A stretch of DNA of 64,000 nt from Casimicrobium huifangae (GTDB taxonomy: Bacteria; Pseudomonadota; Gammaproteobacteria; Burkholderiales; Casimicrobiaceae): assembly GCF_009746125.1 (NCBI RefSeq), contig NZ_CP041352.1, positions 1,391,847 through 1,455,846 on the forward strand, given 5' to 3'. The position numbers were made by a program, and so were the translations under genes. The notes below the pieces were generated by a model. That model searched no databases, was not told where the DNA came from, and saw nothing but the letters and a program-made list of their open reading frames with translations. Position 1 is the first letter of the stretch, and the number at the start of each line of letters is the position of its first letter. Below are positions 47,296 to 64,000 of the stretch, one piece after another.

Positions 47296-48456
47296 CTATG
47301 CCAGTGCGCCTGCAAGTCGCGCCACACCGTCCTGTAGCTTTGCCATGTTGACTGCGTAAGCCATTCGCACATGTTCCCGGGCGCGGAATTCGCCGAAGTC
47401 GATGCCGGGCGCGAAGGCGACGCCGGTGCGGTCGAGCATTTCGCTGGCGAACTTTTCGCTATCGCGGGTGAAGGCACTGACGTCGGCATAGACGAAGAAG
47501 CCGCCGTCAGGCAGGATGGGGATCTTGAAGCCGATTTTGCCGAGCGCGGTCGCAAAGTAGTCCCGTCGTGCCTGGAATTCCGCCCGGCGAGCCTCGGCAA
47601 TGGCGTAGGCGGCGTCGGAGAAGCAGGCCAGCGCAGCATGCTGCGAAAGCGCCGCCGGCGAGATGTAGAGGTTCTGCGCCAGCTTTTCGAGATCGCGCAC
47701 ATGACGCTCCGGCGCGACCAGCCAGCCCAGGCGCCAACCGGTCATGTTCCAGTATTTTGAAAAGCTGCTCACCACAAACGCGTCATCGCTGTGCGCCAAT
47801 GCGGTCTCCGGCGGCCGGCCATAGTTGAGACCGGCATAAGTCTCGTCCGAGATCAGCAAGCCGCCGTGGGCTGCCACGCAGTCAACGATGCGTTTGAGCT
47901 CGCCCTCGTGCAGGCTGGTACCGGTAGGGTTCGACGGGCTCGCCACCAGCACACCCTTGGTGCTGCGGCCCCAAGCGCGGTCAATCATCGCTGCGGTGAA
48001 CTGGTAGGCGTCATCGGGCCCGACCGGCAAGGTGCGCGGTACACCCTCCATCACCCGCACGAAATGGCGATTGCAGGGGTAGGAGGGGTCAGTGAGCAGG
48101 ATTTCGTCGTCGCGACCCACCAGCAGCGCACAAGTGAGCAGTAGCGCCGCGGAGCCGCCCGCGGTGACGATGATGCGCTCCGGCGCAATGTCGAGGCCGT
48201 GCAAGCGCCGGTAGTGGCCGCTGATCGCCTCGCGCAATGCGCGAATGCCGAGGGCGCTGGTGTAGTAGATCTGGCCACTCGCCAGTAACGACTGCGCGGC
48301 GTCGATCACCGGTTGTGGCGTCGGGAAGTCCGGCTCGCCAATTTCCATGTGGATCACGTCGCGTCCCTGTGCCTCCAGCGCGCGGGCGTGAGTGGCAATC
48401 TCCATCACGTGGAAGGGTTCGATCTGCGAAAGGCGGGCGGCGATGGCGGGCGTCAT
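47296..48456 (-). CDS. Class I/II aminotransferase (pyridoxal phosphate)
   Basis: A 386-residue PLP enzyme of the AspC-like group. GRDVIHMEIGEPDFPTP near the N-terminus, ILLTDPSYPCNRHFV, SNPTGTSLHEGEL, the Asp/Tyr segment LLISDETYAGLNYG, the PLP lysine in VSSFSKYWNMTGWRLGW and the C-terminal Arg in EHVRMAYAV are all present. Cytoplasmic; the amino acid acted on is not clear. It is the third gene of a leftward set with the winged-helix/TPR protein (gap 49 bases) and the HAD phosphatase. Confidence 0.92.
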   Translation of the reverse strand: MTPAIAARLSQIEPFHVMEIATHARALEAQGRDVIHMEIGEPDFPTPQPVIDAAQSLLASGQIYYTSALGIRALREAISGHYRRLHGLDIAPERIIVTAGGSAALLLTCALLVGRDDEILLTDPSYPCNRHFVRVMEGVPRTLPVGPDDAYQFTAAMIDRAWGRSTKGVLVASPSNPTGTSLHEGELKRIVDCVAAHGGLLISDETYAGLNYGRPPETALAHSDDAFVVSSFSKYWNMTGWRLGWLVAPERHVRDLEKLAQNLYISPAALSQHAALACFSDAAYAIAEARRAEFQARRDYFATALGKIGFKIPILPDGGFFVYADVSAFTRDSEKFASEMLDRTGVAFAPGIDFGEFRAREHVRMAYAVNMAKLQDGVARLAGALA

Positions 48457-48505
48457 TGACTGCGAACGCGAAGCGTTGAAAAAGGGAGAAGCGTGGCGCC
48501 TGCTG

Positions 48506-50233
48506 TCAGGGCGCCGCAGGATAGTTCATGGTGGCCAGCAGCGCCTGCCAGCGGGGATCACCGTGGTGTCGGCGAAACGCAGGTTGGCACGGTAGCAGAA
48601 GTTGTAGCGGTTCAGTCGGTACTGCCACAGCCCGTACATGCTCGAAAAACGCTGCATCATCGGCGCCGCCGCTCTCAACGCAGGCGATCGCGAAGTGCCG
48701 TGCACCATCGCGCAGCCGACTGAACTGCGGGTAGCGGGTGCGCGCCGCGGAGAGGTCACCCAGTCGCGCCTCGGCGAACCCGGCGTGGAATACGAGCTGG
48801 GCGGCGGTCGGGAAGCGTTGCAGCGCCAGTTCGGCGGTGCGCAGCGATTGCGCGTGTTCACCGGCGAGCTCCAGCCAGGTGCACAGCGTATCGAAGTAAA
48901 ACGCCGATTCGCCAAGCAGGCGACGCGCATCGTCGATTGCCCGCCTCGATTCGGCGAGCCGGTCGCCTGCCATGAGCGTCAGCGCGTGGTGGTAGCGGGC
49001 GGGTGGCGCCAGCGGATCAAGCGTGAGCACATGCTCATAGATGGCGGTGGCATCGGCAAAACGCCCGAGCGAGAGGTAGATGAAGCCCAGGCGCGCGTTG
49101 ACGCCGCCGTGGTTGGGCGCCAGCGCAACGGCCTCCTGCGCCCGTGCGAGGCCAAGCGCCCATTGCCGCTGGTTGCAGATGGTGGTGTAAGCCGACAGCG
49201 AGCGCGCCTGTGCGCTGCCCGGATCCAGGGCAATGGCCTGTTCGAGCGCGGCCTCGGCATCGCCCTGATCGAGAGTTGGCTCACTCGACAGTACTGAGCG
49301 GCGCGAGTAGCGCACCATCGCAAGTACAAACCAGGCATCGGCATGCTGCGGATCAAGTTCTGTTGCGCGCGTGGCCATTGCTTCGGCCAGCGCGAGATTT
49401 TCCGGCGTTTGCGTCACATTCAGACCGCGAGCCTGATCAATCAGCCCCTGCACTTGCGGCGCCGTGTTGCGGGCCACGACATGTGGCGCGTCCGCCACAG
49501 CGCCCAAAGTCAGCGACCGCAACATCAGGTCGATCAGGGCATCGAGCAGCACATGACGCTCGTCGCGTGCGAAGGTGAAGACGTGGCTCCACTGGTGGCT
49601 GCCGTCGGAGCCGAGCACCAGTTGCGCGGTCACTTTCAGTTGTGCGCCGTCAAGCTGCACGCTGCCTTCCAGCAGTGCATCAACTGCGAGCTCGGTGGCG
49701 ATTTCGCGCACGTCGCGATTGGCATTCTTGTAGCGAAAGCTCGACGTGCGGGCGATCACGCGCACATCGGGCAGCCGCGTCATGGCGTCGATGATGTCTT
49801 CGGACAGGCCATCGCAGAGGGCGTCCTCGTCGCTCCGTCCGGTAAAGTTCGCCAGCGGCAGGACGGCAATGCGCGGCTTGGCAGGCAACCCGGCAGGCGT
49901 GTTGCGGCGGACGATGGGCACATACCCACCGCGCTGGATTTCGATTCGCAACCCGTTGCTGCGTCCCTCGTCCCCGTAGTAACGGTCCAGCAGCTCGCGC
50001 AGTCGGTTGACCGAAACACGAACGATGCCATCGTTGGTTGAATCGTAGGTGGCGGCGTCCCGGCCGAAGACATCCAGCGCGATGACGCTTTCTTTCAGTC
50101 GGGTGCTGCCACCATCGTGCAGGCTGCTGACCAGGTACAGCAACAGGTCGCGCGCCCGCTGCGAACGCGCGAACGCACGGCTGCGCAGCACGCGGGCAAG
50201 CTCGGCGTTGACTTCATCGCGGTTCGGGTTCAT
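48506..50233 (-). CDS. Winged-helix, TolB-like and TPR protein (CadC/adenylate-cyclase-like regulator)
   Basis: 575 residues. Residues about 1-105 carry a helix-rich DNA-binding-like region (FGRDAATYDSTNDGIVRVSV, then RLRELLDRYY and a winged strand pair RIEIQRGGYVPIV). Residues about 120-240 form the TolB N-terminal-like domain (RIAVLPLANFTGRSDEDALC, then GLSEDIIDAMTRL). The rest is TPR helices (from about residue 280). There is no membrane span. This architecture is common in proteobacteria but rarely studied; a transcription regulator with protein-protein arms is the best guess. Target unknown. Confidence 0.82.
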   Translation of the reverse strand: MNPNRDEVNAELARVLRSRAFARSQRARDLLLYLVSSLHDGGSTRLKESVIALDVFGRDAATYDSTNDGIVRVSVNRLRELLDRYYGDEGRSNGLRIEIQRGGYVPIVRRNTPAGLPAKPRIAVLPLANFTGRSDEDALCDGLSEDIIDAMTRLPDVRVIARTSSFRYKNANRDVREIATELAVDALLEGSVQLDGAQLKVTAQLVLGSDGSHQWSHVFTFARDERHVLLDALIDLMLRSLTLGAVADAPHVVARNTAPQVQGLIDQARGLNVTQTPENLALAEAMATRATELDPQHADAWFVLAMVRYSRRSVLSSEPTLDQGDAEAALEQAIALDPGSAQARSLSAYTTICNQRQWALGLARAQEAVALAPNHGGVNARLGFIYLSLGRFADATAIYEHVLTLDPLAPPARYHHALTLMAGDRLAESRRAIDDARRLLGESAFYFDTLCTWLELAGEHAQSLRTAELALQRFPTAAQLVFHAGFAEARLGDLSAARTRYPQFSRLRDGARHFAIACVESGGADDAAFFEHVRAVAVPTEPLQLLLPCQPAFRRHHGDPRWQALLATMNYPAAP

Positions 50234-50312: not shown

Positions 50313-50981
50313 CTAGCGCAGACGCAGTACCGGCTGACCGTGTTCTGCAGCCCATGCAGCCAGCTTTTCGTCGGGATCGACGGCGACCGGACGATCGGCG
50401 GCAAGCAGCAAAGGCAGATCGTTGATCGAATCGCTGAAGGCGGTGACCTCGAAGGAGGCGATTGAACTCTCGCGACTTGCGAGCCATGAATGGAGCCGCA
50501 CAACCTTGCCTTCGCGCATGTTGAGCGTGCCTGATGTCCGTCCGGTGAAGCGGCCGCCCACCACTTCCGGCTCGCTGGCGATCAGGTGCTCGATGCGGAG
50601 ATGCCTTGCCGTGAGTTCGGTGATGTAGCGGTTGGTCGCGGTTGTCATCGCCACCAGATCGGCGCTGGCCAGATGTTGCTCCACCAGCTCACGCGCGGCA
50701 TCAGGAATGCGCGGCACAATCTCAACGTCGAGAAACTCACGGCGCAGCGGCTCCCATTCCTCCGGGCTGCGGCCTGCCAGCGTGCTGACATAGAACTCGG
50801 TAAATTCTCGAACCCTCACTGTTCCAGCTTTGTAGCGGGTCTCCATGTCGGCATTGCGGGCCGAAAACTCGGCGCGGTCGAGAAGGCCGCGCCGGATCAG
50901 GAAGTCACACCAGAGCACATCGCTATCGCCCGTCAGCAGCGTGTGGTCGAGATCGAACAGGGTCAGCTTCTTTTTTGCCAT
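50313..50981 (-). CDS. HAD-superfamily hydrolase, subfamily IB (phosphoserine-phosphatase-like)
   Basis: 222 residues. Motif I LFDLDHTLL (the nucleophile Asp) is at the N-terminus, motif II VAMTTATN at about residue 103, and motif III/IV FSDSINDLPLLLAADRPVAV near the C-terminus. It is a cytoplasmic phosphatase of the HAD-IB type, substrate unknown. Start ATG 50981 is preferred over 51002. First of a leftward set with the winged-helix/TPR gene (gap 79 bases) and the aminotransferase. Confidence 0.9.
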   Translation of the reverse strand: MAKKKLTLFDLDHTLLTGDSDVLWCDFLIRRGLLDRAEFSARNADMETRYKAGTVRVREFTEFYVSTLAGRSPEEWEPLRREFLDVEIVPRIPDAARELVEQHLASADLVAMTTATNRYITELTARHLRIEHLIASEPEVVGGRFTGRTSGTLNMREGKVVRLHSWLASRESSIASFEVTAFSDSINDLPLLLAADRPVAVDPDEKLAAWAAEHGQPVLRLR

Positions 50982-51109: not shown

Positions 51110-52483
51110 TCAGGCACTGCGCAAATGCCACGCCTTGGTGCGGCAGAAGGTCTGGATGCCGTAGGTCGATAGCGTGAGGCCGATGCCGGAGTCGCCGTAG
51201 CCGCTCCACGGCAGACGCGGGCTGACGCGGTCGCAACAATTCCAGTAGACGCTGCCGGCGTTGACTTGCGCCAATATGCCGCGCGCAACGGTTTCATCAG
51301 GTGTATAGACGCCAGCAGTCAGGCCGTAGCGCGTGTCGTTCATCATTGCTACCGCTTCAGCATCGTCGGCGACTTTCTGAATGCCGATAATGGGGCCGAA
51401 GCTCTCCTCGCGCATCAGCTCCATCGAATGATTGACGTCGGCGTAAACCGTCGGCGCATACCAGTTGCCCGGGCCCGGCAGGCGATGGCCGCCGACCAGC
51501 AGGCGGCCGCCCTTGCGCCGCGCATCTTCGACCTGTGCATCGAGCACGTCCAGCTGCGGCGCGCGGGTGATGGCACCGATGTAGGTGTCCTCGGCCATCG
51601 GGTCGCCGACTTTGAAGCCTTTGACGACATCGACGAAGCTGCGCACAAACTCGTCGTAGATCGACGCGTGAACGTAGATGCGCTCCACCGAGCAGCAGCT
51701 CTGGCCGGTGTTATACATCGCGCCATCCGCCAGCGACTCCGCCGCATTTTTTACATTGGCATCGGCGCGCACATAGGTCGGGTCCTTGCCACCCAGCTCC
51801 AGTTGCAGCTTGACCATGCGCGAGCCCATCGTACGGGCAATGCGGGCGCCGGTGCCATAAGAGCCGGTGAAGAAAAGGCCGTCAATCCGCTGCTCCATCA
51901 ACGCAGCGCCAACGCCGCCGTCGCCCACCAACGTGATGAAGGCGTCATAGGGCACGCCAGCCTCGTAGAGCAGGCGCGCGATCTCCAGACCTGTCATCGT
52001 GGCGTACTCGGAGGGTTTGTAGAGCACCGTGTTGCCGGTCAGCAGCGCGGGCACAAACACGTTACCGCCGACAAACCACGGATAGTTCCATGCCGAGATG
52101 TTGCCGACGACGCCGAGTGGCACATGCTCAATCTGCTCACGCATGCCGCCTTCGTCGAAAACTTTCTCGGTACCCGTTGACCGTTCGACGGCGCCAAGGA
52201 AAAAGTCAATGCGGCCCAACAGCCCGTTGAGCTCGTTGCGGGCCTGGCGAATGGGTTTGCCGGTGTCGAGCGTCAGCGTGCGCGCGAGCGACTCGAGGTC
52301 GCGTACCACCAGTGCCCGGAAGCGCTCAATGCAGGCCTTGCGCTCGGTCAGCGGCACGCGATGCCAGCGCGGCTGCGCCGCGCGCGCCTGAGCAGCCTTG
52401 AGCGCAACGGTCGCCGCATCGTCGGCGGGCACTTCGTCGATTTGCCCGCCGGTGGCGGGGTTGATGATTGCCAGCGTAGCCAT
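51110..52483 (-). CDS. Aldehyde dehydrogenase at the end of the 2-AEP operon
   Basis: A 457-residue NAD(P)-dependent aldehyde dehydrogenase. AWNYPWFVGGNVFVPALLTG, the cofactor loop FTGSYGTGARIA, the base Glu in ELGGKDPTYV (about residue 235) and the nucleophile Cys in NTGQSCCSVERIY (about residue 270) are present. It lies 38 bases after the iron alcohol dehydrogenase gene, so the pair would oxidise an alcohol to an acid by way of the aldehyde. In the gamma-glutamyl reading of this operon it would make gamma-glutamylglycine. It is distinct from the PhnY dehydrogenase at 62838, so a second aldehyde must be involved, or the two are redundant. Substrate not proven. Confidence 0.9.
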   Translation of the reverse strand: MATLAIINPATGGQIDEVPADDAATVALKAAQARAAQPRWHRVPLTERKACIERFRALVVRDLESLARTLTLDTGKPIRQARNELNGLLGRIDFFLGAVERSTGTEKVFDEGGMREQIEHVPLGVVGNISAWNYPWFVGGNVFVPALLTGNTVLYKPSEYATMTGLEIARLLYEAGVPYDAFITLVGDGGVGAALMEQRIDGLFFTGSYGTGARIARTMGSRMVKLQLELGGKDPTYVRADANVKNAAESLADGAMYNTGQSCCSVERIYVHASIYDEFVRSFVDVVKGFKVGDPMAEDTYIGAITRAPQLDVLDAQVEDARRKGGRLLVGGHRLPGPGNWYAPTVYADVNHSMELMREESFGPIIGIQKVADDAEAVAMMNDTRYGLTAGVYTPDETVARGILAQVNAGSVYWNCCDRVSPRLPWSGYGDSGIGLTLSTYGIQTFCRTKAWHLRSA

Positions 52484-52521
52484 GCAATATTCCTCTTGTT
52501 CAGTGTATGCCCGAGTTGCCG

Positions 52522-53655
52522 TTACATCGCCGCGAGGAACAGTCGCTCGAAGTCGGCACCCGTGCAGGGCCGCGGGTTGGTCTGGTGGCAGATGTCGCGT
52601 GTGGCGATGTCAACCAGTCGCGGCAGGTGCGCTTCCGTCACGCCATGCGCAATCAGACCGCCATGAATGCCAACACTGGCTTTCATGGACTTGAGCCAGG
52701 GCACGAACGCGCTGCCGCCGCCAGCCACGCCACAGACATGCGCCAGCTCGTCAAACTTCTGCGGTACCGCTTCAAAGTTCCACGCCATGACGGTATCGAT
52801 CATCAGTGCATTGGCCAGGCCGTGGTGCAGGTCGTTGACAGCGCCCAGCGCGTGTGCGCAGGAGTGCACTGCCCCCAGGTCTTTCTGGAAAGCGATGGCT
52901 CCCATCATCGACGCCATCATCATGTCGCTACGTGCCTGCAGATTGCCGGGCTCCTGCACTGCCTTCAGCAGGGCGCGCGCTGCAATGCGGGTGCCCTCCA
53001 GAGCGATGCCGTCGCACAGCGGGTGATAGGCGGGTGAGAGATAGCTCTCCACATTGTGCGTCAGAGCATCAATGCCGGTGGCGGCCGTGACGGCGGGCGG
53101 CAGGCCGACGGTCAATTCAGGGTCGGCGAACACGCAGCGGGCGAGAATTTTTGGGCTGAAGACGACGCGCTTCAGATGCGTATCGTTTTCGCTGACCACC
53201 GATGAACGTCCAACCTCCGAGCCGGTGCCCGAGGTGGTGGGCAGCGCGACGAAATACGGCAGCGGATGCGTGATAGCCCGTACCTGCGGATGATCCCAGA
53301 CGTACTCAAGGATGTCGCCTTCATGCGTCGCGGCGACGCCGACGATCTTTGCCACATCAAGAGCCGCGCCACCGCCAAAGCCGATCACGCAGTCAGCGTT
53401 GTGCGCCTTGTAGGCTGCCGCGCCGTCCATCACCTGCGAGCAGGTCGGGTTGCCGAAGACGCCGGAGAACACGGCGACATCCAGTCCGGTCAACGTGGAT
53501 TTGAATTCGGCAAGTACAGGTAACGCACCCAACGCACGGTCGGTCACGATCAGCGGACGCTTGAGTCCTTGCTCGTGCAGATGGTCGGCGACCAATTTGC
53601 GGGCACCAACGCCAAACTTGATGGCGGTGGGAAAAGAGAAAGAGGAGATCGACAT
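52522..53655 (-). CDS. Iron-containing alcohol dehydrogenase (group III)
   Basis: 377 residues. GFGGGAALDVAKIVGV is the cofactor site and LPTTSGTGSEVGRSSVV the family signature. Metal ligands are Asp and His in TGIDALTHNVESYLSP and His in HSCAHALGAVNDLHHGLANA. It oxidises a primary alcohol or reduces an aldehyde with NAD(P). It starts 18 bases after the ligase gene and is followed by an aldehyde dehydrogenase, so alcohol oxidation is the likely direction. Substrate inferred only from context. Confidence 0.92.
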   Translation of the reverse strand: MSISSFSFPTAIKFGVGARKLVADHLHEQGLKRPLIVTDRALGALPVLAEFKSTLTGLDVAVFSGVFGNPTCSQVMDGAAAYKAHNADCVIGFGGGAALDVAKIVGVAATHEGDILEYVWDHPQVRAITHPLPYFVALPTTSGTGSEVGRSSVVSENDTHLKRVVFSPKILARCVFADPELTVGLPPAVTAATGIDALTHNVESYLSPAYHPLCDGIALEGTRIAARALLKAVQEPGNLQARSDMMMASMMGAIAFQKDLGAVHSCAHALGAVNDLHHGLANALMIDTVMAWNFEAVPQKFDELAHVCGVAGGGSAFVPWLKSMKASVGIHGGLIAHGVTEAHLPRLVDIATRDICHQTNPRPCTGADFERLFLAAM

Positions 53656-53673
53656 GCCAGTAGTGATGCTGCG

Positions 53674-55041
53674 TTAGATGATTTCGAAGTAGCGCTTGAG
53701 TTCCCAGTCGGTGACCGCATCCTGCCACTGCCGCCATTCCCACTCACGGGTGGCAGCAAAGTGGTCGACGAAAGTGTCGCCGAGCCAGTCGCGCGCGATG
53801 GCGGATTCGCGGAAGTTGCGTGTGGTCTCGATCAGTGTGCGCGGTGCGCGTGGCACGTTGTCAGCGCCCTGGTTGGTGCCAGTGATCGGCGGTGCCGTCA
53901 GCTTGAGGCCCTTCTCGACACCGTGAAGGCCGGCGGCGATCAGGGCCGCAGCGGCAAGATAGGGGTTGACGTCGGCACCGGGGCAACGGGTTTCCAGCCG
54001 GGTCGCCTTCGGTGAACCGGCGATCACGCGGAAGCTCGCGGTGCGGTTGTCCAGTCCCCAGGTCGGTTTGACCGGTGCCCAGAAGCCATCGACCAGCCGC
54101 TTGTAGCTGTTGATCGTGGGCCAGAACATCGGCGCGAACTCCATGAGGCAGGCAACCTGGCCAGCAAGATAACTCTCGAAGAGCTTGCTCATGGAGCGCG
54201 GGCTTTTGGCGTCGTAGAACAGATTCTTCTTGCCGTCGGAGAGGCTCTGGTGCAGATGCCCGCTACAGCCGGGATATTGCTGGTTCCATTTGGCCATGAA
54301 GCTCGGCATGATGCCGTAGCGCTTGCCAATTTCGCGGGCACCGGTCTTGAACAGAATCGCACGGTCCGCCTGCTCGAGTGCGTCGCTGAAGGCGATCGCT
54401 GCTTCGTATACACCTGGGCCGGTTTCGGTGTGCAGGCCTTCAATCGGTACGCCGAAGGCGAGCATCTCATCCATCAGCGCGTTGAAGAAGGGCCGGTTGT
54501 CGGCCATGCGCAGCAGCGAGTAGCCGAACATGCCCGGTGTCAGCGGCGTCGGAGCCACGCCACGCTTCTCGGCCCAGCTCTGCGGTGTTTCGACGAAATT
54601 GAACCACTCGAACTCCATGCCTGTCATCGGCTGCACGCCGAGCTTCTCGGCCCGTTTCAGGACGCGCTTCAACGTCTGCCGGGGGCACACCGGGAACGGT
54701 GAGCCGTCGGCATTGATGAATTCGCCGAGGAAAAAGTTGACATTGCCGTCCCAAGGCACCTGCCGATGGGTATTGAGGTCGAGCCGCGCCAAGGCATCCG
54801 GGAAGCCATGCTGCCAGCCGGTGACCGTCGTGTTGTCATAGCAGTTGTCGTGCGCGTCCCAGCCGAACACGACATCGCAGAAGCCGAAGCCGCTGTCAGC
54901 GGCGCCGTAGAACTTGTCACGGTGCAGGTACTTGCCACGCAGGATGCCGTCGATATCGCTGACGGCAACCTTGACCTTGCTGGCGCCGGATTTGCGGATC
55001 GCGGCGAGGGCGGGATGTTCTTTGGGTACTCGGGTTGCCAT
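53674..55041 (-). CDS. Glutamine-synthetase-like gamma-glutamyl-amine ligase
   Basis: A 455-residue type-III/PuuA-like member of the glutamine synthetase family. Present are the N-terminal SDIDGILRGKYL (D-x-x-G-x-x-R-G-K), metal residues in TGMEFEWFNF, the ATP/Mg segment GCSGHLHQSL, the Arg segment DNRTASFRVI and LETRCPGADVNPYLAAAAL, so catalysis is likely. PuuA and GlnA4 relatives couple glutamate to an amine such as putrescine or ethanolamine. It sits 21 bases after phnW inside the 2-AEP operon, which points to an aminoethyl compound as the amine. No amidohydrolase to release the product is adjacent. Confidence 0.9.
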   Translation of the reverse strand: MATRVPKEHPALAAIRKSGASKVKVAVSDIDGILRGKYLHRDKFYGAADSGFGFCDVVFGWDAHDNCYDNTTVTGWQHGFPDALARLDLNTHRQVPWDGNVNFFLGEFINADGSPFPVCPRQTLKRVLKRAEKLGVQPMTGMEFEWFNFVETPQSWAEKRGVAPTPLTPGMFGYSLLRMADNRPFFNALMDEMLAFGVPIEGLHTETGPGVYEAAIAFSDALEQADRAILFKTGAREIGKRYGIMPSFMAKWNQQYPGCSGHLHQSLSDGKKNLFYDAKSPRSMSKLFESYLAGQVACLMEFAPMFWPTINSYKRLVDGFWAPVKPTWGLDNRTASFRVIAGSPKATRLETRCPGADVNPYLAAAALIAAGLHGVEKGLKLTAPPITGTNQGADNVPRAPRTLIETTRNFRESAIARDWLGDTFVDHFAATREWEWRQWQDAVTDWELKRYFEII

Positions 55042-55062
55042 GTGATTCTCTCTGCCTTCAGT

Positions 55063-56184
55063 TCATTGCGAGGCGCCGGACGGAATGCCAAGCTCCCTGA
55101 GCGCCAGGGCGACGGCATGCACCGCCTGCTCGATTTCCATTGGTGTAATCGCACCAATACAACCGACGCGGAACGTCTCCACCTGCGTCAATTTGCCCGG
55201 ATACAGGATGAAGCCGTGCGCCTTGGCGGCTTCGTAAAAGCGCTTGAAATCGTAGTTCGGGTGCGCCGGTGCGTGAAACGTGACGATGATCGGCGCCTGC
55301 ACGCTGGGGTCGAGAAACGGCTTGAAGCCGAGCGCGCGCATGCCGCTCACCAGCGTCTCGTAGTTGCTCGTGTAGCGCGCCAACCGCGCCGGTTGACCGC
55401 CTTCTGCCTCGAACTGGGCGATCGCCTCGGCCAGCGCCACCACCACGTGCGTCGGGGGCGTAAAGCGCCACTGGCCGGTTTTCTCCATGTAGACGTATTG
55501 ATCGTGCAGGTCCATTGCCAGTGACTGGCTGCGACCGGCGCAGTCATCGAGAATGGCTTTGCGGATGAAGACGAAGCCCATGCCGGGCACGCCTTCCAGA
55601 CATTTGCCGCTGGCCGCGATCAGCGCATCGAAACGGGTCTTGCGCGCATCGATTTCAATGGCCGCAAACGAGCTCATGGCATCGATGATGAGCCCTTTGC
55701 CAGCCGCTGCGCAGACATCCGCAATCTCCGGCAGCGGGTTCAGTACACCGGCGCCTGTTTCGCAGTGAATCAGCACCACATGGGTGATGCTGGCGTCGGC
55801 ATCGAGTTTGTCGCGTAGCGCGGATGGCGACACCGGCTCATGGTCGGCGAACGGCATCACGGTGCAGCGGCGGTCCATCATGGTCGTCAGCTTTGCAGCG
55901 CGCTTGCAGTAGGCGCCGTTGTCGAGCACCAGCACGTGGCCATCGCGGGGCACGACCGTCGCTACCGCAGCTTCCACGCTGAACGTGCCACTGCCCTGGA
56001 GGGGCACGACCACGTGTGTCTGCTCTCCGTGAACAACGGCGAGCAGGCTCTTGCGTACGCGGGCAGTCACGGCGTTGAACTCGGCATCCCATGAACCCCA
56101 GTCGCGCAGCATGGCGAGCTTGGTTTGCAGCGACGTGGTCAGGGGGCCGGGGGTGAGAAGGATTCGGTCGTGAGACATGAGCAA
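55063..56184 (-). CDS. phnW: 2-aminoethylphosphonate-pyruvate transaminase
   Basis: A 373-residue PLP enzyme converting 2-AEP and pyruvate to phosphonoacetaldehyde and alanine. The N-terminal [45 protein letters not shown] (the C-terminal domain entry), [10 protein letters not shown] and the PLP lysine in [19 protein letters not shown] are all present. It is full length. It lies between the transporter genes and the ligase gene with gaps of about 20 bases. With PhnY and PhnA on the other side of the regulator it forms the complete route to acetate and phosphate. Confidence 0.96.
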
Positions 56185-56207: not shown

Positions 56208-57941
56208 CTAACGACCGCCGCGCCAAGCCTGCGTGCGACGGTCTACCCAACGCGCGAGCAGCATGAAGACGCCGGTGGACACCGCAGAAATCGCAGCGAT
56301 CATCACCGCCATCGCGGCGGCGGCGCCGATCTCGCCCGCCTCGTCCAGGTTGAGAATGGCAATGGAGGCAACCTTGGTGTCGGGCGAGTACAGGAACACC
56401 ACAGCCGAAATCGTTGTCATCGCGTTGACGAAGAAATAGCGCGCAATGTCCACCATGGCTGGTGTGCAGATCGGCAGTGTGACGCGCCAGAAGGTGCGGA
56501 ACCACGGCACCTTGAGCGATGCGCTGACGGCTTCAAACTCGCTGTCAAGCGATTTCAGTGCGGTCACCGCTGTCAGATGCCCGGTGGTGTAGAAGTGGAT
56601 GATGGTGCACAGGGTCAAGAGTGCAGTGGTCTGATAAAGGCCATGCAGCGGGTTGTTTGGCGCGTTGAAGAAGAAGATGTAGCCAAGACCCAGGACCAGT
56701 CCGGGCACGGCCATCGGCAGCATCGCGAGCATGCGCACCGGACCGCGCAGCAAGGGAGCGCCCTTGGTCTTCTCAAGCAGATAGGCGCCGAAGAATACGA
56801 GCAGCGTGCCAAAGAAAGCGGTGCCCGCCGCCATCTTGAGGCTGTTGACGAAACCTTCACCTACCTCGCCATCGACGAGGCCGAGCACGTAGTGGCGCAG
56901 GCTTGGCGTCAGGTTGTATGGCCAGAAGCTGGCGAACGAGGCAAAGATCGCCATGCCGAGCATCGCGAGCATCAGTAGTGCCACGGCGCTGCAGCAGAGC
57001 AGCATCACGCGGTCGAAGCCCTTGCTCGGCGTGGGTCGGTACGGCACAGCGCGCGCGGTCAACATGGCTGTTTGCCGGCGGCTCACGTAGTGATCCACGG
57101 CAAAGGTGAACACGGCGGGCAGCAACAACAACAGAGCGACGACTGAACCCTTGGCGAAATCCTGCTGGCCGATCACCAGTTTGAAGACGTCGGTAGCGAG
57201 TACGTTGAAGTTGCCGCCGATCACCTTCGGGATGCCGAAGTCCGTCATTACCAGCGTGAAGGTAACCAGTGCAGCCGAAAGCAGGCCGTACTTGGCGCCG
57301 GGTAGCGTGATGGTGAAGAACTTGCGGGCACGGCTGGTACCCATCGCGGCTGCCGCCTCATAGAGCCGCGCATCGGCAAGACTGAGCGCAGTGATCAGAA
57401 TCATCAGCGCATGCGGAAATACGGCAAAACACTCGGCCAGCACGATGCCCGGGGCGCCATAGATCTGGCTGATGCCGAGCGCCTGCATGAAGCCCTTGGC
57501 AATGCCCTGATTGCCGAACCAATAGATCAGGGAGATCGCCGACAGCAGCGACGGCGCCAGCAGTGGGATCAGGCTGATGCCACGGAATAGCGGTTTCCAT
57601 CGCATGCAGGACCGGGTGAGCCCGTAGGCAAACAGAAAGGCGATCGGAATGGTGATGAAGGTGACCGCCAGTGAAACCCAGACACTGTTCCACAGACTGT
57701 TGAGCAAGGCCGGCGTTTGTGCATACGCAATGAAATTGGCCAGACCGACGAACTCGCGGTTCTTCCCCTCAAAGGCCTGCATCAGTATCGCTGTTAGTGG
57801 CGCCGCGAGAAAGGCCAGCAGGATCAGGGCAATGCCGACAAGCCAGACGTGCGCAACGCGGTCGGACCAGTGCACGCGCTGATGCAACGCGGTTCCGGCC
57901 ACCGGCGCCAGGGCAGAGGTCGTTGTCACCGCGACGGCCAT
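56208..57941 (-). CDS. 2-AEP ABC transporter, fused permease
   Basis: A 577-residue protein with twelve predicted helices formed from two permease halves, as in FbpB-type iron and putative 2-AEP transporters. The first half has the EAA loop LYEAAAAMGTSRARKFFTIT, the second DSEFEAVSASLKVPWFRTFW. It equals PhnU plus PhnV in one chain. One base separates it from the ATPase gene before it, and 23 bases from phnW after it. Inner membrane; imports 2-AEP with PhnS and PhnT. Confidence 0.92.
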   Translation of the reverse strand: MAVAVTTTSALAPVAGTALHQRVHWSDRVAHVWLVGIALILLAFLAAPLTAILMQAFEGKNREFVGLANFIAYAQTPALLNSLWNSVWVSLAVTFITIPIAFLFAYGLTRSCMRWKPLFRGISLIPLLAPSLLSAISLIYWFGNQGIAKGFMQALGISQIYGAPGIVLAECFAVFPHALMILITALSLADARLYEAAAAMGTSRARKFFTITLPGAKYGLLSAALVTFTLVMTDFGIPKVIGGNFNVLATDVFKLVIGQQDFAKGSVVALLLLLPAVFTFAVDHYVSRRQTAMLTARAVPYRPTPSKGFDRVMLLCCSAVALLMLAMLGMAIFASFASFWPYNLTPSLRHYVLGLVDGEVGEGFVNSLKMAAGTAFFGTLLVFFGAYLLEKTKGAPLLRGPVRMLAMLPMAVPGLVLGLGYIFFFNAPNNPLHGLYQTTALLTLCTIIHFYTTGHLTAVTALKSLDSEFEAVSASLKVPWFRTFWRVTLPICTPAMVDIARYFFVNAMTTISAVVFLYSPDTKVASIAILNLDEAGEIGAAAAMAVMIAAISAVSTGVFMLLARWVDRRTQAWRGGR

Positions 57942-57942
57942 C

Positions 57943-59040
<1,098 letters not shown>

Positions 59041-59161: not shown

Positions 59162-60199
59162 CTAGCGCTTCTCCGTCTTGGAGTCGTAGCGCTTGATCCA
59201 CTCGGCCAGAATGCGTTCGCGGTTTTCTGCGGCCCACGCGAAGTCCATCTTCACCAGTCGTGCTTCATAGTCGGAGGGCACATTCGGCAGCGGAGGAGCC
59301 ATGCCAGGAACGGCGGTGATCGCAAAGTTCTTGCCGTAAAGCGCCATCGCATCTTTGCTTGCCGCCCAGTCGGCGAGTTTCTTCGCCGCATCAAGCTTCT
59401 TGGTGCCCTTGTGGATGCCGAATGCTTCCAGATCCCAGCCGAGGCCTTCCTTCGGGAACACCAGATCAATCGGTGCGCCCTTGGCTTTGTTGCTGTTGCC
59501 GCGGTATTCGAACGAGATGCCGAGCACAAACTCACCCGAGGCCGCCATGTTGCAAGGCTTCGAGCCGGAGTGGGTGTACTGGGCGATGTTTTCGTGCAGG
59601 CCGTTCATGAACTGCCAGCCACCGCCCTTGCCGCCGTCATCACCAAACAGCGTGAGCCATGCGGTGACGTCGAAGAAGCCGGTGCCGCTGGATGCCGGGT
59701 TCGGCATCACGATCTGGCCCTTGTAGACCGGTTTGGTCAGGTCCTTCCAGGTTTCCGGCTTCGGGATGTTTTTCTTGGCGGCCTCGACCGTGTTGAAGCA
59801 GACGGTCGCACCCCACACGTCCATGCCGAACCAGGCGGGTGGTGACTTCTTGTCCTTGTACTGCGCCTGAATCGCCGCCAGACCGGCTGGGGCGTACGGC
59901 TCCAGCATGCCCTGCTTGTCGAGAAGTGCAAGGCTGGATGCGGCAACCCCCATCACTGCGTCGGCAACCGGATTTGCTTTCTCTGCAATCAGTTTGGCTG
60001 TGACCACACCAGTGGAGTCGCGAACCCATTTGATTTCGATATCGGGGTGGGCCTTGTAGAAGCCCTGTTCGTAAGCCTTGAGCTGATCAGTTTCCAGCGC
60101 GGTGTAGACCGTCAGCGAGGTCTTTTGCGCGTAACCCAGTGATGCAAACAAAACGGCGCCGGCAAGCGCGCCGAGGCGAAACAAGTTAGACAAACGCAT
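59162..60199 (-). CDS. phnS: 2-AEP ABC transporter, periplasmic binding protein
   Basis: 345 residues. The signal peptide runs MRLSNLFRLGALAGAVLFAS with cleavage near GYAQ. The mature part begins SLTVYTALETDQLKAYEQGF, the family start. FGMDVWGATVCFN and PNPASSGTGFFDV are typical of the iron/2-AEP binding group. First gene of the leftward operon; its promoter and a palindromic operator lie at 60200-60430, opposite the GntR gene. Confidence 0.93.
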   Translation of the reverse strand: MRLSNLFRLGALAGAVLFASLGYAQKTSLTVYTALETDQLKAYEQGFYKAHPDIEIKWVRDSTGVVTAKLIAEKANPVADAVMGVAASSLALLDKQGMLEPYAPAGLAAIQAQYKDKKSPPAWFGMDVWGATVCFNTVEAAKKNIPKPETWKDLTKPVYKGQIVMPNPASSGTGFFDVTAWLTLFGDDGGKGGGWQFMNGLHENIAQYTHSGSKPCNMAASGEFVLGISFEYRGNSNKAKGAPIDLVFPKEGLGWDLEAFGIHKGTKKLDAAKKLADWAASKDAMALYGKNFAITAVPGMAPPLPNVPSDYEARLVKMDFAWAAENRERILAEWIKRYDSKTEKR

Positions 60200-60408
60200 A
60201 TCGTGGTTCCTTTACAAAATCTTGCAATGGTGTGTCCAGTCCATGACAACGCTGTGACGGGCAGGCTGGAGCAATCGCCCTCTTTTCGCCGCGCCCGGTA
60301 GCTGGATTCCGTGGGCAAGACTGGCATGAACCAGCCTGCGTGGACGTCCCCTCGCGCCGTCGTCGAGTTGTTTTAGACCCGAGTTCGATTATTTGTCAAT
60401 TGTTTTTT

Positions 60409-60428
60409 GCAGATTGTTGACAATCTGC
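60409..60428. promoter_or_regulatory. Palindromic operator candidate for the GntR regulator
   Basis: GCAGATTGTTGACAATCTGC, a perfect inverted repeat with 8-base arms around TTGA, contains TTGTTGACAA, close to the TTGTnnACAA-type sites of FCD-class GntR regulators. A partial site TTTGTCAATTG lies just upstream (60393-60403). The position between the divergent phnS and GntR genes allows control of both. The binding itself is inferred. Confidence 0.7.
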
Positions 60429-61256: not shown

Positions 61257-62778
<1,522 letters not shown>

Positions 62779-62837
62779 TCTCAATGCCCGCGTGGCGCCG
62801 ACGCTTCACGATCAACTTTGTCTGTCAGCTAGCCCAT

Positions 62838-64000
62838 GAGCATCCAGCAGTTCATCCTAGATCATCACCTCAACGCCATGCGCATCAACGGCAAGCGCGT
62901 CGGCGGTGATCGCACTGGCGAGCGCGCGATTGCCGTGCACAATCCGTACACCGAAGAGGTCATCGGCAACGTCCCGAAGGCGACACTGGAAGAGGTGCGC
63001 GCCGCCTTCAGTACCGGCCATGCTTACCGGTCGAAGCTCACGCGCTATGAGCGTGCTGCCATTCTCAACCGCGCCGCCGATATCGCAAATCGGCGCAAAG
63101 ACGAGGTGGCAGCCCTGATCTCCGCAGAAGCTGGCCTTTGCATGAAGGATGCGATTTACGAAGCGGGCCGCGTGAGTGACGTTTTCCTTTTCGGTGCCAA
63201 CGAGGTGCTGAAGGACGACGGGCAAGTCTTCAGTTGTGACCTGACGCACCACGGCAAGAAAAGGCGCGTCTATACGCAGCGCTCGCCTTTGCTCGGCGTG
63301 ATCACGGCGATCACGCCTTTCAATCACCCGATGAATCAGGTGGCGCACAAGGTGGTGCCGAGCGTCGCAACCAACAATCGCATGGTGTTGAAGCCCTCGG
63401 AGAAGGTACCGTTTTCCGCCATTCTGCTCGCTGACTTTCTTTACGAGGCGGGGCTGCCCCCCGAGATGCTGTCGGTCGTGACTGGCGATCCAAGGGAGAT
63501 TGCCGACGAACTGCTCACCAATGAGCACGTTGATCTGATCACCTTCACCGGTGGCGTGGCCATCGGCAAGTACATTGCAAACAAAGCCGGTTACCGTCGC
63601 ATGGTGCTTGAGCTTGGGGGCAACGATCCGATCATCGTGATGGAAGACGCCGATGTCGACGAAGCGTCCACGTTGGCGGTGCAAGGGTCATACAAAAACA
63701 GCGGACAGCGCTGCACGGCGATCAAGCGGATGCTGGTACATGAATCCGTCGCCGACGCATTTACCGAGCAGGTGGTGACCAAGACCAAGGCGTGGTCTTA
63801 CGGCGACCCGGCGGATACAAAAGTCGACATGGGCACCGTGATCGACGAGCCGGCGGCACGCCTGTTTGAGAGCCGTGTCAACGAAGCTGTAGCGCAGGGT
63901 GCGCGGCTGCTGGTGGGCAATGAGCGTCGCGGCGCACTTTACTCGCCCACGGTGATTGATCGCGTTGATCCCGCCATGACGGTCGCGCGAGAAGAAACCT
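62838..64000 (+). CDS. phnY: Phosphonoacetaldehyde dehydrogenase (cut by the window edge)
   Basis: 387 complete codons from ATG 62838, no stop before the edge. An aldehyde dehydrogenase with AITPFNHPMNQVAHKVVPSV, VLKPSEKVPFSA, cofactor loop FTGGVAIGKYIA, base Glu in VLELGGNDPIIV and nucleophile Cys in NSGQRCTAIKRM. The form ITPFNHPMNQVAHK is typical of phosphonoacetaldehyde dehydrogenases. It oxidises phosphonoacetaldehyde to phosphonoacetate for PhnA. Translated by hand, because the open frame is truncated at the edge. Confidence 0.92.

What the first reader, a model, noticed from the sequence alone, without database searches (positions are those of the whole stretch)
51110..56184. 2-AEP operon carries a complete gamma-glutamyl-amine oxidation set (ligase, Fe-alcohol dehydrogenase, aldehyde dehydrogenase)
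Seen: phnW is followed by a glutamine-synthetase-like ligase, an iron alcohol dehydrogenase and a second aldehyde dehydrogenase with gaps of 21, 18 and 38 bases, all on the same strand as the 2-AEP importer. Known: in Streptomyces a GlnA4 ligase, an alcohol dehydrogenase and an aldehyde dehydrogenase are proposed to turn ethanolamine into gamma-glutamylglycine, and PuuA relatives do the same for putrescine. Inference: the operon may handle ethanolamine, hydroxylated 2-AEP or another aminoethyl compound besides 2-AEP, giving nitrogen and carbon next to phosphorus. I do not know of this combination as a described system. The final hydrolase is missing.
Basis: partly seen in the sequence, partly recalled or inferred. 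Interest (0 to 1): 0.72.

Follow-up and report, generated by a model that had tools for sequence, protein, structure and literature searches.

The report
Ethanolamine-burning genes fused to phosphonate operon
A bacterium carries, inside the operon that imports and degrades the phosphonate 2-AEP, a set of genes that very probably breaks down ethanolamine by first tagging it with glutamate, plus a phosphatase that may let the same operon also use phosphoethanolamine, the phosphate twin of 2-AEP.

Summary
In detail: phnW, a GS-like ligase, an Fe-alcohol dehydrogenase and a second aldehyde dehydrogenase lie on one strand with gaps of 21, 18 and 38 bases. The ligase-ADH-ALDH trio is a widespread module that also occurs without phnW; 40 of 54 relatives also show the "missing" C26 γ-glutamyl hydrolase. 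In several genomes without phnW the module sits beside ethanolamine permease, an EutR-like regulator or EutBC, so its substrate is very probably ethanolamine, processed as in the γ-glutamyl-ethanolamine pathways known from other bacteria. New here is the fusion with the 2-AEP operon: it recurs in Burkholderiales, arose at least twice on the PhnW tree, and shares a PhnR-type regulator and operator with two phnW-free modules. A HAD phosphatase just downstream belongs to the unit: present in 18 of 18 fused loci with importer and ALDH, no hit in 20 of 20 phnW loci without the module in view, not directly downstream in 23 of 23 modules without phnW in view. The boldest reading: this phosphatase makes ethanolamine from imported O-phosphoethanolamine, the phosphate-ester analogue of 2-AEP. 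That step is inferred. No activity was tested.

The parts
53674..55041 (-). GS-like γ-glutamyl ligase (proposed γ-glutamylethanolamide synthetase)
   Evidence: Gln-synt_C; far under all five NCBIfam GS/PuuA cut-offs listed; context and tree; AF2 model matches the GS fold, TMq 0.74-0.88 in the rows listed
52522..53655 (-). iron-type alcohol dehydrogenase (proposed γ-glutamylethanolamide dehydrogenase)
   Evidence: PF00465/PF25137; not PsrA-type Phn_Fe-ADH (153.6 bits, cut-off 423.7)
51110..52483 (-). aldehyde dehydrogenase (proposed γ-glutamyl-aminoacetaldehyde dehydrogenase)
   Evidence: PF00171; not PhnY (216.5 bits, cut-off 635.65)
55063..56178 (-). phnW, 2-AEP:pyruvate transaminase (ORF opens at 56184 with TTG; ATG at 56178 likelier)
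   Evidence: NF010006 572.5 bits, cut-off 296; start
50313..50981 (-). HAD-IB phosphatase, probable last gene of the composite operon (candidate O-phosphoethanolamine phosphatase)
   Evidence: TIGR01490 and TIGR01488 over cut-off; 18 of 18 fused loci with importer and ALDH; no hit in 20 of 20 phnW loci without cassette in view
56208..57941 (-). phnU2, 2-AEP ABC importer permease
   Evidence: TIGR03262 784 bits, cut-off 593
57943..59040 (-). phnT2, 2-AEP ABC importer ATPase
   Evidence: TIGR03265 496 bits, cut-off 458
59162..60199 (-). phnS2, 2-AEP binding protein of the composite-operon group
   Evidence: TIGR03261 499 bits, cut-off 393; groups with all composite rows, support 94
60394..60423 (-). 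candidate PhnR operator with embedded TTGACA (-35-like)
   Evidence: single exact site in the genome, backward control 0; same motif, spacer one base longer, before the cassette in L143/L146
60393..61256 (+). phnR, FCD/GntR regulator (start probably downstream of the operator)
   Evidence: TIGR03338 328.6 bits, cut-off 271.5
61282..62778 (+). phnA, phosphonoacetate hydrolase
   Evidence: TIGR02335 601 bits, cut-off 408
62836..63999 (+). phnY, phosphonoacetaldehyde dehydrogenase (runs off the window)
   Evidence: TIGR03250 639.3 bits on the part seen, cut-off 635.65

Best explanation
The three genes after phnW are an ethanolamine-degrading module built into a 2-AEP operon. Proposed route (every enzymatic step is inferred from family and context). 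The GS-like ligase joins glutamate to ethanolamine with ATP. The Fe-ADH oxidises γ-glutamylethanolamide to the aldehyde. The ALDH makes γ-glutamylglycine. A γ-glutamyl hydrolase (C26, in the cassette of most relatives; here presumably another enzyme of the cell) releases glycine and glutamate. In parallel PhnW, PhnY and PhnA turn 2-AEP into acetate and phosphate. Shown by sequence: gene order, its recurrence, the module's independent life beside ethanolamine genes, and a shared operator-like site with a PhnR-type regulator. Inferred: one promoter upstream of phnS2 drives the whole unit, so the cell takes N and C from ethanolamine together with P (and N, C) from 2-AEP.
For: Module without phnW: 14 of 20 fetched class-level loci keep FeADH and ALDH beside the ligase, 0 of 20 show phnW. 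The fourth gene is a C26 hydrolase (PF07722 190.8 bits in L143, cut-off 20.5). Ethanolamine markers beside the cassette: permease TIGR00908 over its cut-off of 381.75 in L133, L144, L192 and L033, and 360-376 bits in five more; EutB 666.9 (cut-off 554) and EutC 334.3 (cut-off 230) in L146; EutR-like regulators, below cut-off. On the ligase tree (quick method) phnW-linked and ethanolamine-linked contexts interleave, with at least 7 changes forced by starred branches, so closely related enzymes work in both settings. Association with phnW: 12 of 399 order genomes hold both against about 2.2 expected, p=4e-8 ignoring kinship; 11 of the 12 lie within 27 kb on one contig. Operator: one exact site per genome in 10 of 40 genomes, backward controls 0. 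In L143 and L146, whose genomes gave no phnW match, it lies directly before the ligase, near a PhnR with 77% identity.
Against: No ethanolamine permease over cut-off in this genome (best 76.9 bits; none of the 14 control genomes passes that cut-off either) and no EutB match, so how ethanolamine enters is open. No hydrolase in the window's operon; the genome's best C26 is only 32-37% identical to 13 cassette C26s compared. The C. salexigens ligase structure is a distant cousin (29-30%). The exact operator pattern was absent in 30 of 40 genomes, among them fused ones (G378, G662, G803). In L143 and L146 the permease beside PhnR is an amino-acid-type APC of unassigned substrate (198 and 214 bits, cut-off 598). 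No activity, binding or expression data.
Confidence: 0.78

Rival explanations
1. The composite operon uses O-phosphoethanolamine besides 2-AEP: the importer carries both isosteres, the HAD-IB enzyme cuts phosphoethanolamine to ethanolamine and phosphate, and the γ-glutamyl module takes the ethanolamine. (An extension of the best explanation.)
For: HAD occurs in 18 of 18 fused loci with importer and ALDH and 0 of 3 fused loci without importer, one of these broken. It directly follows the ALDH in 13 of 14 phnW-adjacent loci and 0 of 23 loci without phnW in view, and has no hit in 20 of 20 phnW loci without cassette in view. In the window's genus HAD is in 9 of 17 genomes: the 8 with the ligase, plus G387. 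On a quick tree HAD was recruited at least twice. Composite binding proteins group together (support 94) even where PhnW and the ligase do not. Composite loci have no ethanolamine permease hit.
Against: No substrate data for the HAD; the nearest family model is histidinol-phosphatase (221 bits, cut-off 280) and the nearest solved structure is uncharacterised. Four loci whose upstream part is not visible (L118, L123, L151, L170) also have HAD after ALDH. AepX, another 2-AEP binding protein, is highly specific, and the word phosphoethanolamine does not occur in that paper's main text (PMC8316502). In Phaeobacter the phosphate is removed outside the cell and ethanolamine is imported (PMC10132767, passages).
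Confidence: 0.45
2. The ligase glutamylates 2-AEP or another phosphonate amine rather than ethanolamine.
For: Adjacency to phnW in 22 of 67 loci with upstream sequence.
Against: Ligases of this family occur without a phnW match in 15 of 16 genomes examined (completeness not told) and beside ethanolamine genes. γ-Glutamyl-2-AEP has no alcohol for the ADH to oxidise.
Confidence: 0.06
3. Fe-ADH and ALDH handle phosphonate carbon (hydroxyethylphosphonate to phosphonoacetate) and the ligase is incidental.
For: A phosphonate-linked Fe-ADH family (TIGR03405) and PhnY exist.
Against: Window Fe-ADH scores 153.6 (cut-off 423.7) and ALDH 216.5 (cut-off 635.65) against these models; a true phnY lies at 62836; the trio travels together without phn genes.
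Confidence: 0.04
4. A γ-glutamyl pathway for another amine alcohol or amine (alaninol, isopropanolamine, putrescine).
For: Two Paenarthrobacter aurescens TC1 proteins annotated ipuC (γ-glutamylisopropylamide synthetase) are 38 and 41% identical.
Against: Neighbouring genes in relatives are ethanolamine-specific by curated models; PuuA model 170 bits against cut-off 650.
Confidence: 0.1

Closest known systems
γ-Glutamyl-ethanolamine operon of Phaeobacter sp. MED193 (eto genes) and its C. salexigens / A. tumefaciens relatives
   Same: Glutamylating ligase, ALDH, alcohol dehydrogenase and γ-glutamylglycine amidohydrolase in one operon (PMC10132767, passages); ethanolamine as substrate
   Different: There a TRAP importer for ethanolamine, extracellular dephosphorylation and the order ligase-ALDH-ADH; the passages name no phn gene in that operon. 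Here order GS-ADH-ALDH, a 2-AEP ABC importer, PhnR and HAD. Ligase only 29-30% identical to Csal_0679, which I take by its locus number to be the neighbour of the EtoX homologue Csal_0678
Streptomyces coelicolor GlnA4 pathway
   Same: γ-Glutamylethanolamide synthetase shown; dehydrogenase, ALDH and amidohydrolase steps proposed (PMC6529630, passages)
   Different: A short-chain dehydrogenase gene is named instead of an Fe-ADH; the passages show no phosphonate genes. Sequence not compared here
PhnWAY 2-AEP pathway with 'funnel' enzymes PbfA-D and PbfF
   Same: PhnW, PhnY, PhnA, importer; extra enzymes that widen the substrates of the cluster (PMC8154272, PMC10590968, PMC12366243, PMC10574752; passages)
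   Different: The Pbf enzymes in the passages feed other phosphonates into phosphonoacetaldehyde; here the added module does not touch the C-P bond
Puu putrescine pathway
   Same: γ-Glutamyl ligase, aldehyde dehydrogenase, C26 hydrolase logic
   Different: Puu oxidises an amine by a flavoenzyme (recalled), here an alcohol by Fe-ADH; ligase far under the PuuA cut-off

Membership tests
γ-glutamylated ethanolamine pathway | GS-like ligase that is not the cell's ammonia GS | tested here: met
   Under TIGR00653 (202 bits, cut-off 429) and TIGR03105 (205, cut-off 470); a second GS homologue elsewhere in the genome, 36% identical over query residues 185-379
γ-glutamylated ethanolamine pathway | alcohol and aldehyde dehydrogenase in the same operon | tested here: met
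   Fe-ADH in 49 and ALDH in 44 of 54 relatives with 5 kb downstream
γ-glutamylated ethanolamine pathway | γ-glutamyl hydrolase in the operon | tested here: not met
   Absent in the window's operon; C26 in 40 of 54 relatives; genome has a C26 at C1:2568172 only 32-37% like cassette C26s
γ-glutamylated ethanolamine pathway | dedicated ethanolamine transporter | tested here: not met
   TIGR00908 best 76.9 bits, cut-off 381.75, in the whole genome (a strict cut-off, no control genome passes); some relatives without phnW have it. TRAP-type transporters were not searched for
γ-glutamylated ethanolamine pathway | activity of the ligase on ethanolamine | not testable with these tools
   Needs protein assay
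PhnWAY 2-AEP pathway | phnW, phnA, phnY and importer | tested here: met
   All over NCBIfam cut-offs (phnY only in part)
Puu putrescine pathway | PuuA-type ligase | tested here: not met
   NF045547 170 bits, cut-off 650
PsrA / Phn_Fe-ADH | TIGR03405 membership of the Fe-ADH | tested here: not met
   153.6 bits, cut-off 423.7
HAD-IB histidinol-phosphatase | NF052360 membership of the HAD | tested here: not met
   221 bits, cut-off 280

The most novel reading that the evidence does not exclude
The operon is a dual head-group operon. One importer takes up 2-AEP and its phosphate-ester isostere O-phosphoethanolamine. The HAD-IB enzyme is a phosphoethanolamine phosphatase that feeds the γ-glutamyl ethanolamine module, while PhnW-PhnY-PhnA handles 2-AEP; PhnR switches both on. 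Phosphono- and phospho-lipid head groups would thus be one nutrient for these bacteria.
Probability: 0.42. Interest if true: 0.78.

Novelty: new variant of a known kind. Interest (0 to 1): 0.62.

Why it matters
It joins two nutrient routes, phosphonates and ethanolamine from phospholipids, in what looks like one co-regulated unit found in many Burkholderiales records. It names a new ancillary function for 2-AEP clusters and gives an unassigned HAD-IB phosphatase family, an unassigned GS-like ligase family and the PhnR operator concrete, testable roles.

Tried and rejected
Rejected: the Fe-ADH as the known phosphonate Fe-ADH and the ALDH as a second PhnY (one search scores far under cut-off; real phnY at 62836). 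Rejected: ligase specific to phosphonates (module without phnW). Rejected: HAD as an ordinary member of phn operons (no hit in 20 of 20) or as a general gene of the genus (9 of 17). The first operator pattern, with a 6-base spacer, missed the window; the phn sites have a 5-base spacer and were found. I listed composite-specific residues of PhnS2 (F260, H263, M285, T295 and others) but did not place them relative to the ligand pocket (no structure of it was predicted). The anchor to C. salexigens rests on the Csal_0679 structure title; I had no Phaeobacter, Agrobacterium or GlnA4 sequence to compare. Ten paper searches (listings with abstract starts) showed no paper on this pairing; only open-licence papers are in that library, and no preprints. 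The idea that a HAD phosphatase can act on phosphoethanolamine (animal PHOSPHO1) is recalled, from no call.
Full report
WHAT IS THERE. One search confirms four - strand genes with gaps of 21, 18 and 38 bases: phnW (56184-55063), a GS-like ligase (55041-53674), an iron alcohol dehydrogenase (53655-52522) and an aldehyde dehydrogenase (52483-51110). Upstream on the same strand lie phnU2, phnT2 and phnS2; divergent from these are phnR, phnA and phnY. All these phn genes pass their NCBIfam cut-offs (phnY, cut by the window end, 639.3 bits against 635.65). The ligase (5 models), the Fe-ADH (16) and the ALDH (best 25 of 44 shown) pass no NCBIfam cut-off shown, so they are unassigned members of their superfamilies. 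The simple scan found no terminator-like site in the gaps, but found no more sites than shuffles do and did not flag the promoter proposed below. Downstream follows a HAD-IB phosphatase gene (50981-50313) that the finding did not include. G383, G385 and G378 of its genus have contigs of the same lengths as records titled 'Burkholderiales bacterium', so I take it to be one of the Burkholderiales.

THE MODULE LIVES WITHOUT PHNW. In 369 class-level genomes, 22 had the ligase at E<=1e-90, the own genome among them. I fetched 20 of the other 21 neighbourhoods: 14 keep both dehydrogenases beside it and none shows phnW. In the window's family, 37 of 64 genomes have the ligase. I fetched the 36 other loci. 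All 7 from the window's own genus have phnW directly upstream. In the 29 from other genera no phnW is directly upstream; in 10 of them phnW is visible, always on the other strand, and several contigs are short. Of 54 with at least 5 kb downstream, 49 have Fe-ADH, 44 ALDH, 40 a C26 hydrolase and 38 all three. Of 67 with at least 1.3 kb upstream, 22 have phnW 38-111 bases upstream on the same strand (22 of 53 with ligase identity of 70% or more, 0 of 14 below).

THE MISSING HYDROLASE. The gene between Fe-ADH and ALDH in relatives is a Peptidase C26 / class I glutamine amidotransferase (PF07722 190.8 bits in L143; closest NCBIfam model PuuD, under cut-off). It is absent in the window and in the six genus loci with view. 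The genome has another C26 gene (215 bits) only 32-37% identical to 13 cassette C26s, so the last step here is open.

SUBSTRATE. In several loci without phnW the cassette stands beside ethanolamine genes. TIGR00908 ethanolamine permease scores 585.8 (L133), 583.6 (L144), 433.9 (L192) and 388.5 (L033) against a cut-off of 381.75. It scores 360-376 in L135, L130, L027, L164 and L174, and 126.7 in L024. EutB (666.9, cut-off 554) and EutC (334.3, cut-off 230) follow the cassette in L146. An EutB-like protein (391, below the cut-off of 554) precedes it in L231, with similar hits in L232 and L234. EutR-like regulators score 134 and 142 against a cut-off of 319. Many other phnW-free loci show no such marker: 55 of 109 rows of the tree carry no label. 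On that ligase tree (quick method, SH-aLRT only) the phnW-adjacent label needs 11 changes, at least 7 of them forced by starred branches. For example L117 (phnW) groups with L133 and L144 (ethanolamine permease) at support 89. Closely related enzymes thus sit in both settings, which argues for ethanolamine in both. The predicted ligase fold is that of GS.

LINKAGE WITH PHNW. In 399 genomes of the order, 21 have the ligase (E<=1e-150), 41 have phnW (E<=1e-90) and 12 have both, against about 2.2 expected (Fisher p=4e-8, which ignores kinship). From the coordinates, 11 of the 12 lie on one contig within 27 kb, five of them on one strand within 1.6 kb; G805 has them on different contigs. On the PhnW tree 30 composite rows form one starred clade, and L177/L218 (one locus) lie elsewhere. 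The fusion thus arose at least twice.

SHARED CONTROL. Between phnR and phnS2 lies TTGTCAACAATCTGCA-N5-CAATTGACA (window 60394-60423, - strand), holding a candidate -35. A pattern allowing spacers of 5-6 gave exactly one site in each of 10 of 40 chosen genomes and none in the backward controls; fused genomes G378, G662 and G803 gave none. In L143 and L146 the site (6-base spacer) lies 54 and 122 bases before the ligase match, near a PhnR with 77% identity (322 bits, cut-off 271.5 for L143) and an APC permease of unassigned substrate. Those genomes gave no phnW match at E<=1e-60 (1 of 16 genomes had one, that of L163). With up to 4 mismatches 26 of 27 hits in the 136 loci and the window lie before phnS2, phnW or the cassette (the window's own by position), the stray one is in L124, and reversed sequence gave 0. 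So a PhnR-type regulator seems to govern the ethanolamine module even where phnW is absent. Regulator binding itself is not shown.

THE HAD GENE. I called a locus fused if phnW and ligase lie on one strand within 2.5 kb: 33 loci (window and four duplicates left out). Of these, 22 show at least 3 kb upstream and 6 kb downstream; 19 of the 22 have the importer and 18 of the 19 have HAD. The exception L117 also lacks ALDH and C26, so HAD is in 18 of 18 with importer and ALDH. The 3 without importer have no HAD, one of them (L125) being broken. In two of the 18 the unit is looser: L134 has a divergent EutR-like gene between phnW and ligase, and L177 has HAD itself there. HAD directly follows ALDH in 13 of 14 phnW-adjacent against 0 of 23 loci without phnW in view. 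Left out of these two groups were 11 loci: 5 with phnW elsewhere in view (HAD after ALDH in L134) and 6 with too little upstream, 4 of which have HAD after ALDH (L118, L123, L151, L170). HAD gave no hit in 20 of 20 phnW stretches (up to 19.5 kb) without cassette in view (one of these genomes, G805, has the ligase on another contig). In the genus, HAD is in 9 of 17 genomes: the 8 with the ligase, plus the fragmented G387. L177/L228 carry a HAD of another group placed after phnW (quick tree), so it was probably recruited separately. HAD-like genes also occur near but not in such an operon in L081, L083, L084, L107, L174/L229 and L082. The binding proteins of the 25 composite rows (24 loci, L177 and L218 being one) group together at support 94, just under a star, including L177/L218, whose PhnW and ligase do not group with the rest. 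Composite loci show no ethanolamine permease hit, this genome has none over cut-off and no EutB. Together this suggests that ethanolamine arrives as phosphoethanolamine. That is inference. The HAD's nearest model is histidinol-phosphatase under cut-off and its nearest solved relative is uncharacterised.

LITERATURE. GlnA4 of S. coelicolor is a shown γ-glutamylethanolamide synthetase with later steps proposed (PMC6529630, passages). Phaeobacter MED193 raises proteins of a ligase-ALDH-ADH-amidohydrolase-TRAP operon when grown on phosphorylethanolamine, an operon called closely related to a demonstrated C. salexigens and A. tumefaciens pathway; there phosphate is removed outside the cell, and the ethanolamine-binding EtoX did not bind phosphorylethanolamine (PMC10132767, passages; the underlying paper was not seen). 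Ancillary enzymes of 2-AEP clusters so far described feed other phosphonates in (PMC8154272, PMC10590968, PMC12366243, PMC10574752; passages); the words glutamine and synthetase do not occur in these four main texts. AepX is highly specific for 2-AEP among the ligands shown (PMC8316502, passages). Ten searches (listings) showed no paper on the fusion.

VERDICT. The fused operon is real and recurrent. The added module is very probably an ethanolamine pathway of known chemistry in a new setting (new variant of a known kind). The phosphatase and importer point to a dual phospho/phosphono head-group operon, which is a clear and cheap experiment.

Noticed in passing
window 60394-60423: Conserved operator-like element holding a TTGACA in front of phnS2; the listed TTG start of phnR at 60393 lies at its edge, so phnR probably starts further down.
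   Followed up: yes
window 47296-50233: A TPR/winged-helix gene and an aminotransferase follow the HAD gene on the same strand in the genus loci with view (aminotransferase in 6 of 6, TPR gene in 5 of 6); no hit to them in the composite loci of other genera listed.
   Followed up: no
L132:11352-11855, L143:11431-11892: A GNAT acetyltransferase gene lies between ligase and Fe-ADH (Pfam for L143; L132 by look).
   Followed up: partly
L081, L083, L120, L163, L168: A gene for a peptide-type (DppA-like by look) binding protein sits between ligase and Fe-ADH.
   Followed up: no
L146:15018-18982: EutB and EutC lie just downstream of a γ-glutamyl cassette, with two other ORFs in between (one ATPase-like by look): two different ethanolamine routes side by side.
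   Followed up: partly
L124:12544-14125: Two C26 hydrolase matches in tandem within the cassette.
   Followed up: no
window 61282-62778: The phnA model match begins at residue 96 of the 498-residue ORF, so the true start is probably downstream.
   Followed up: no
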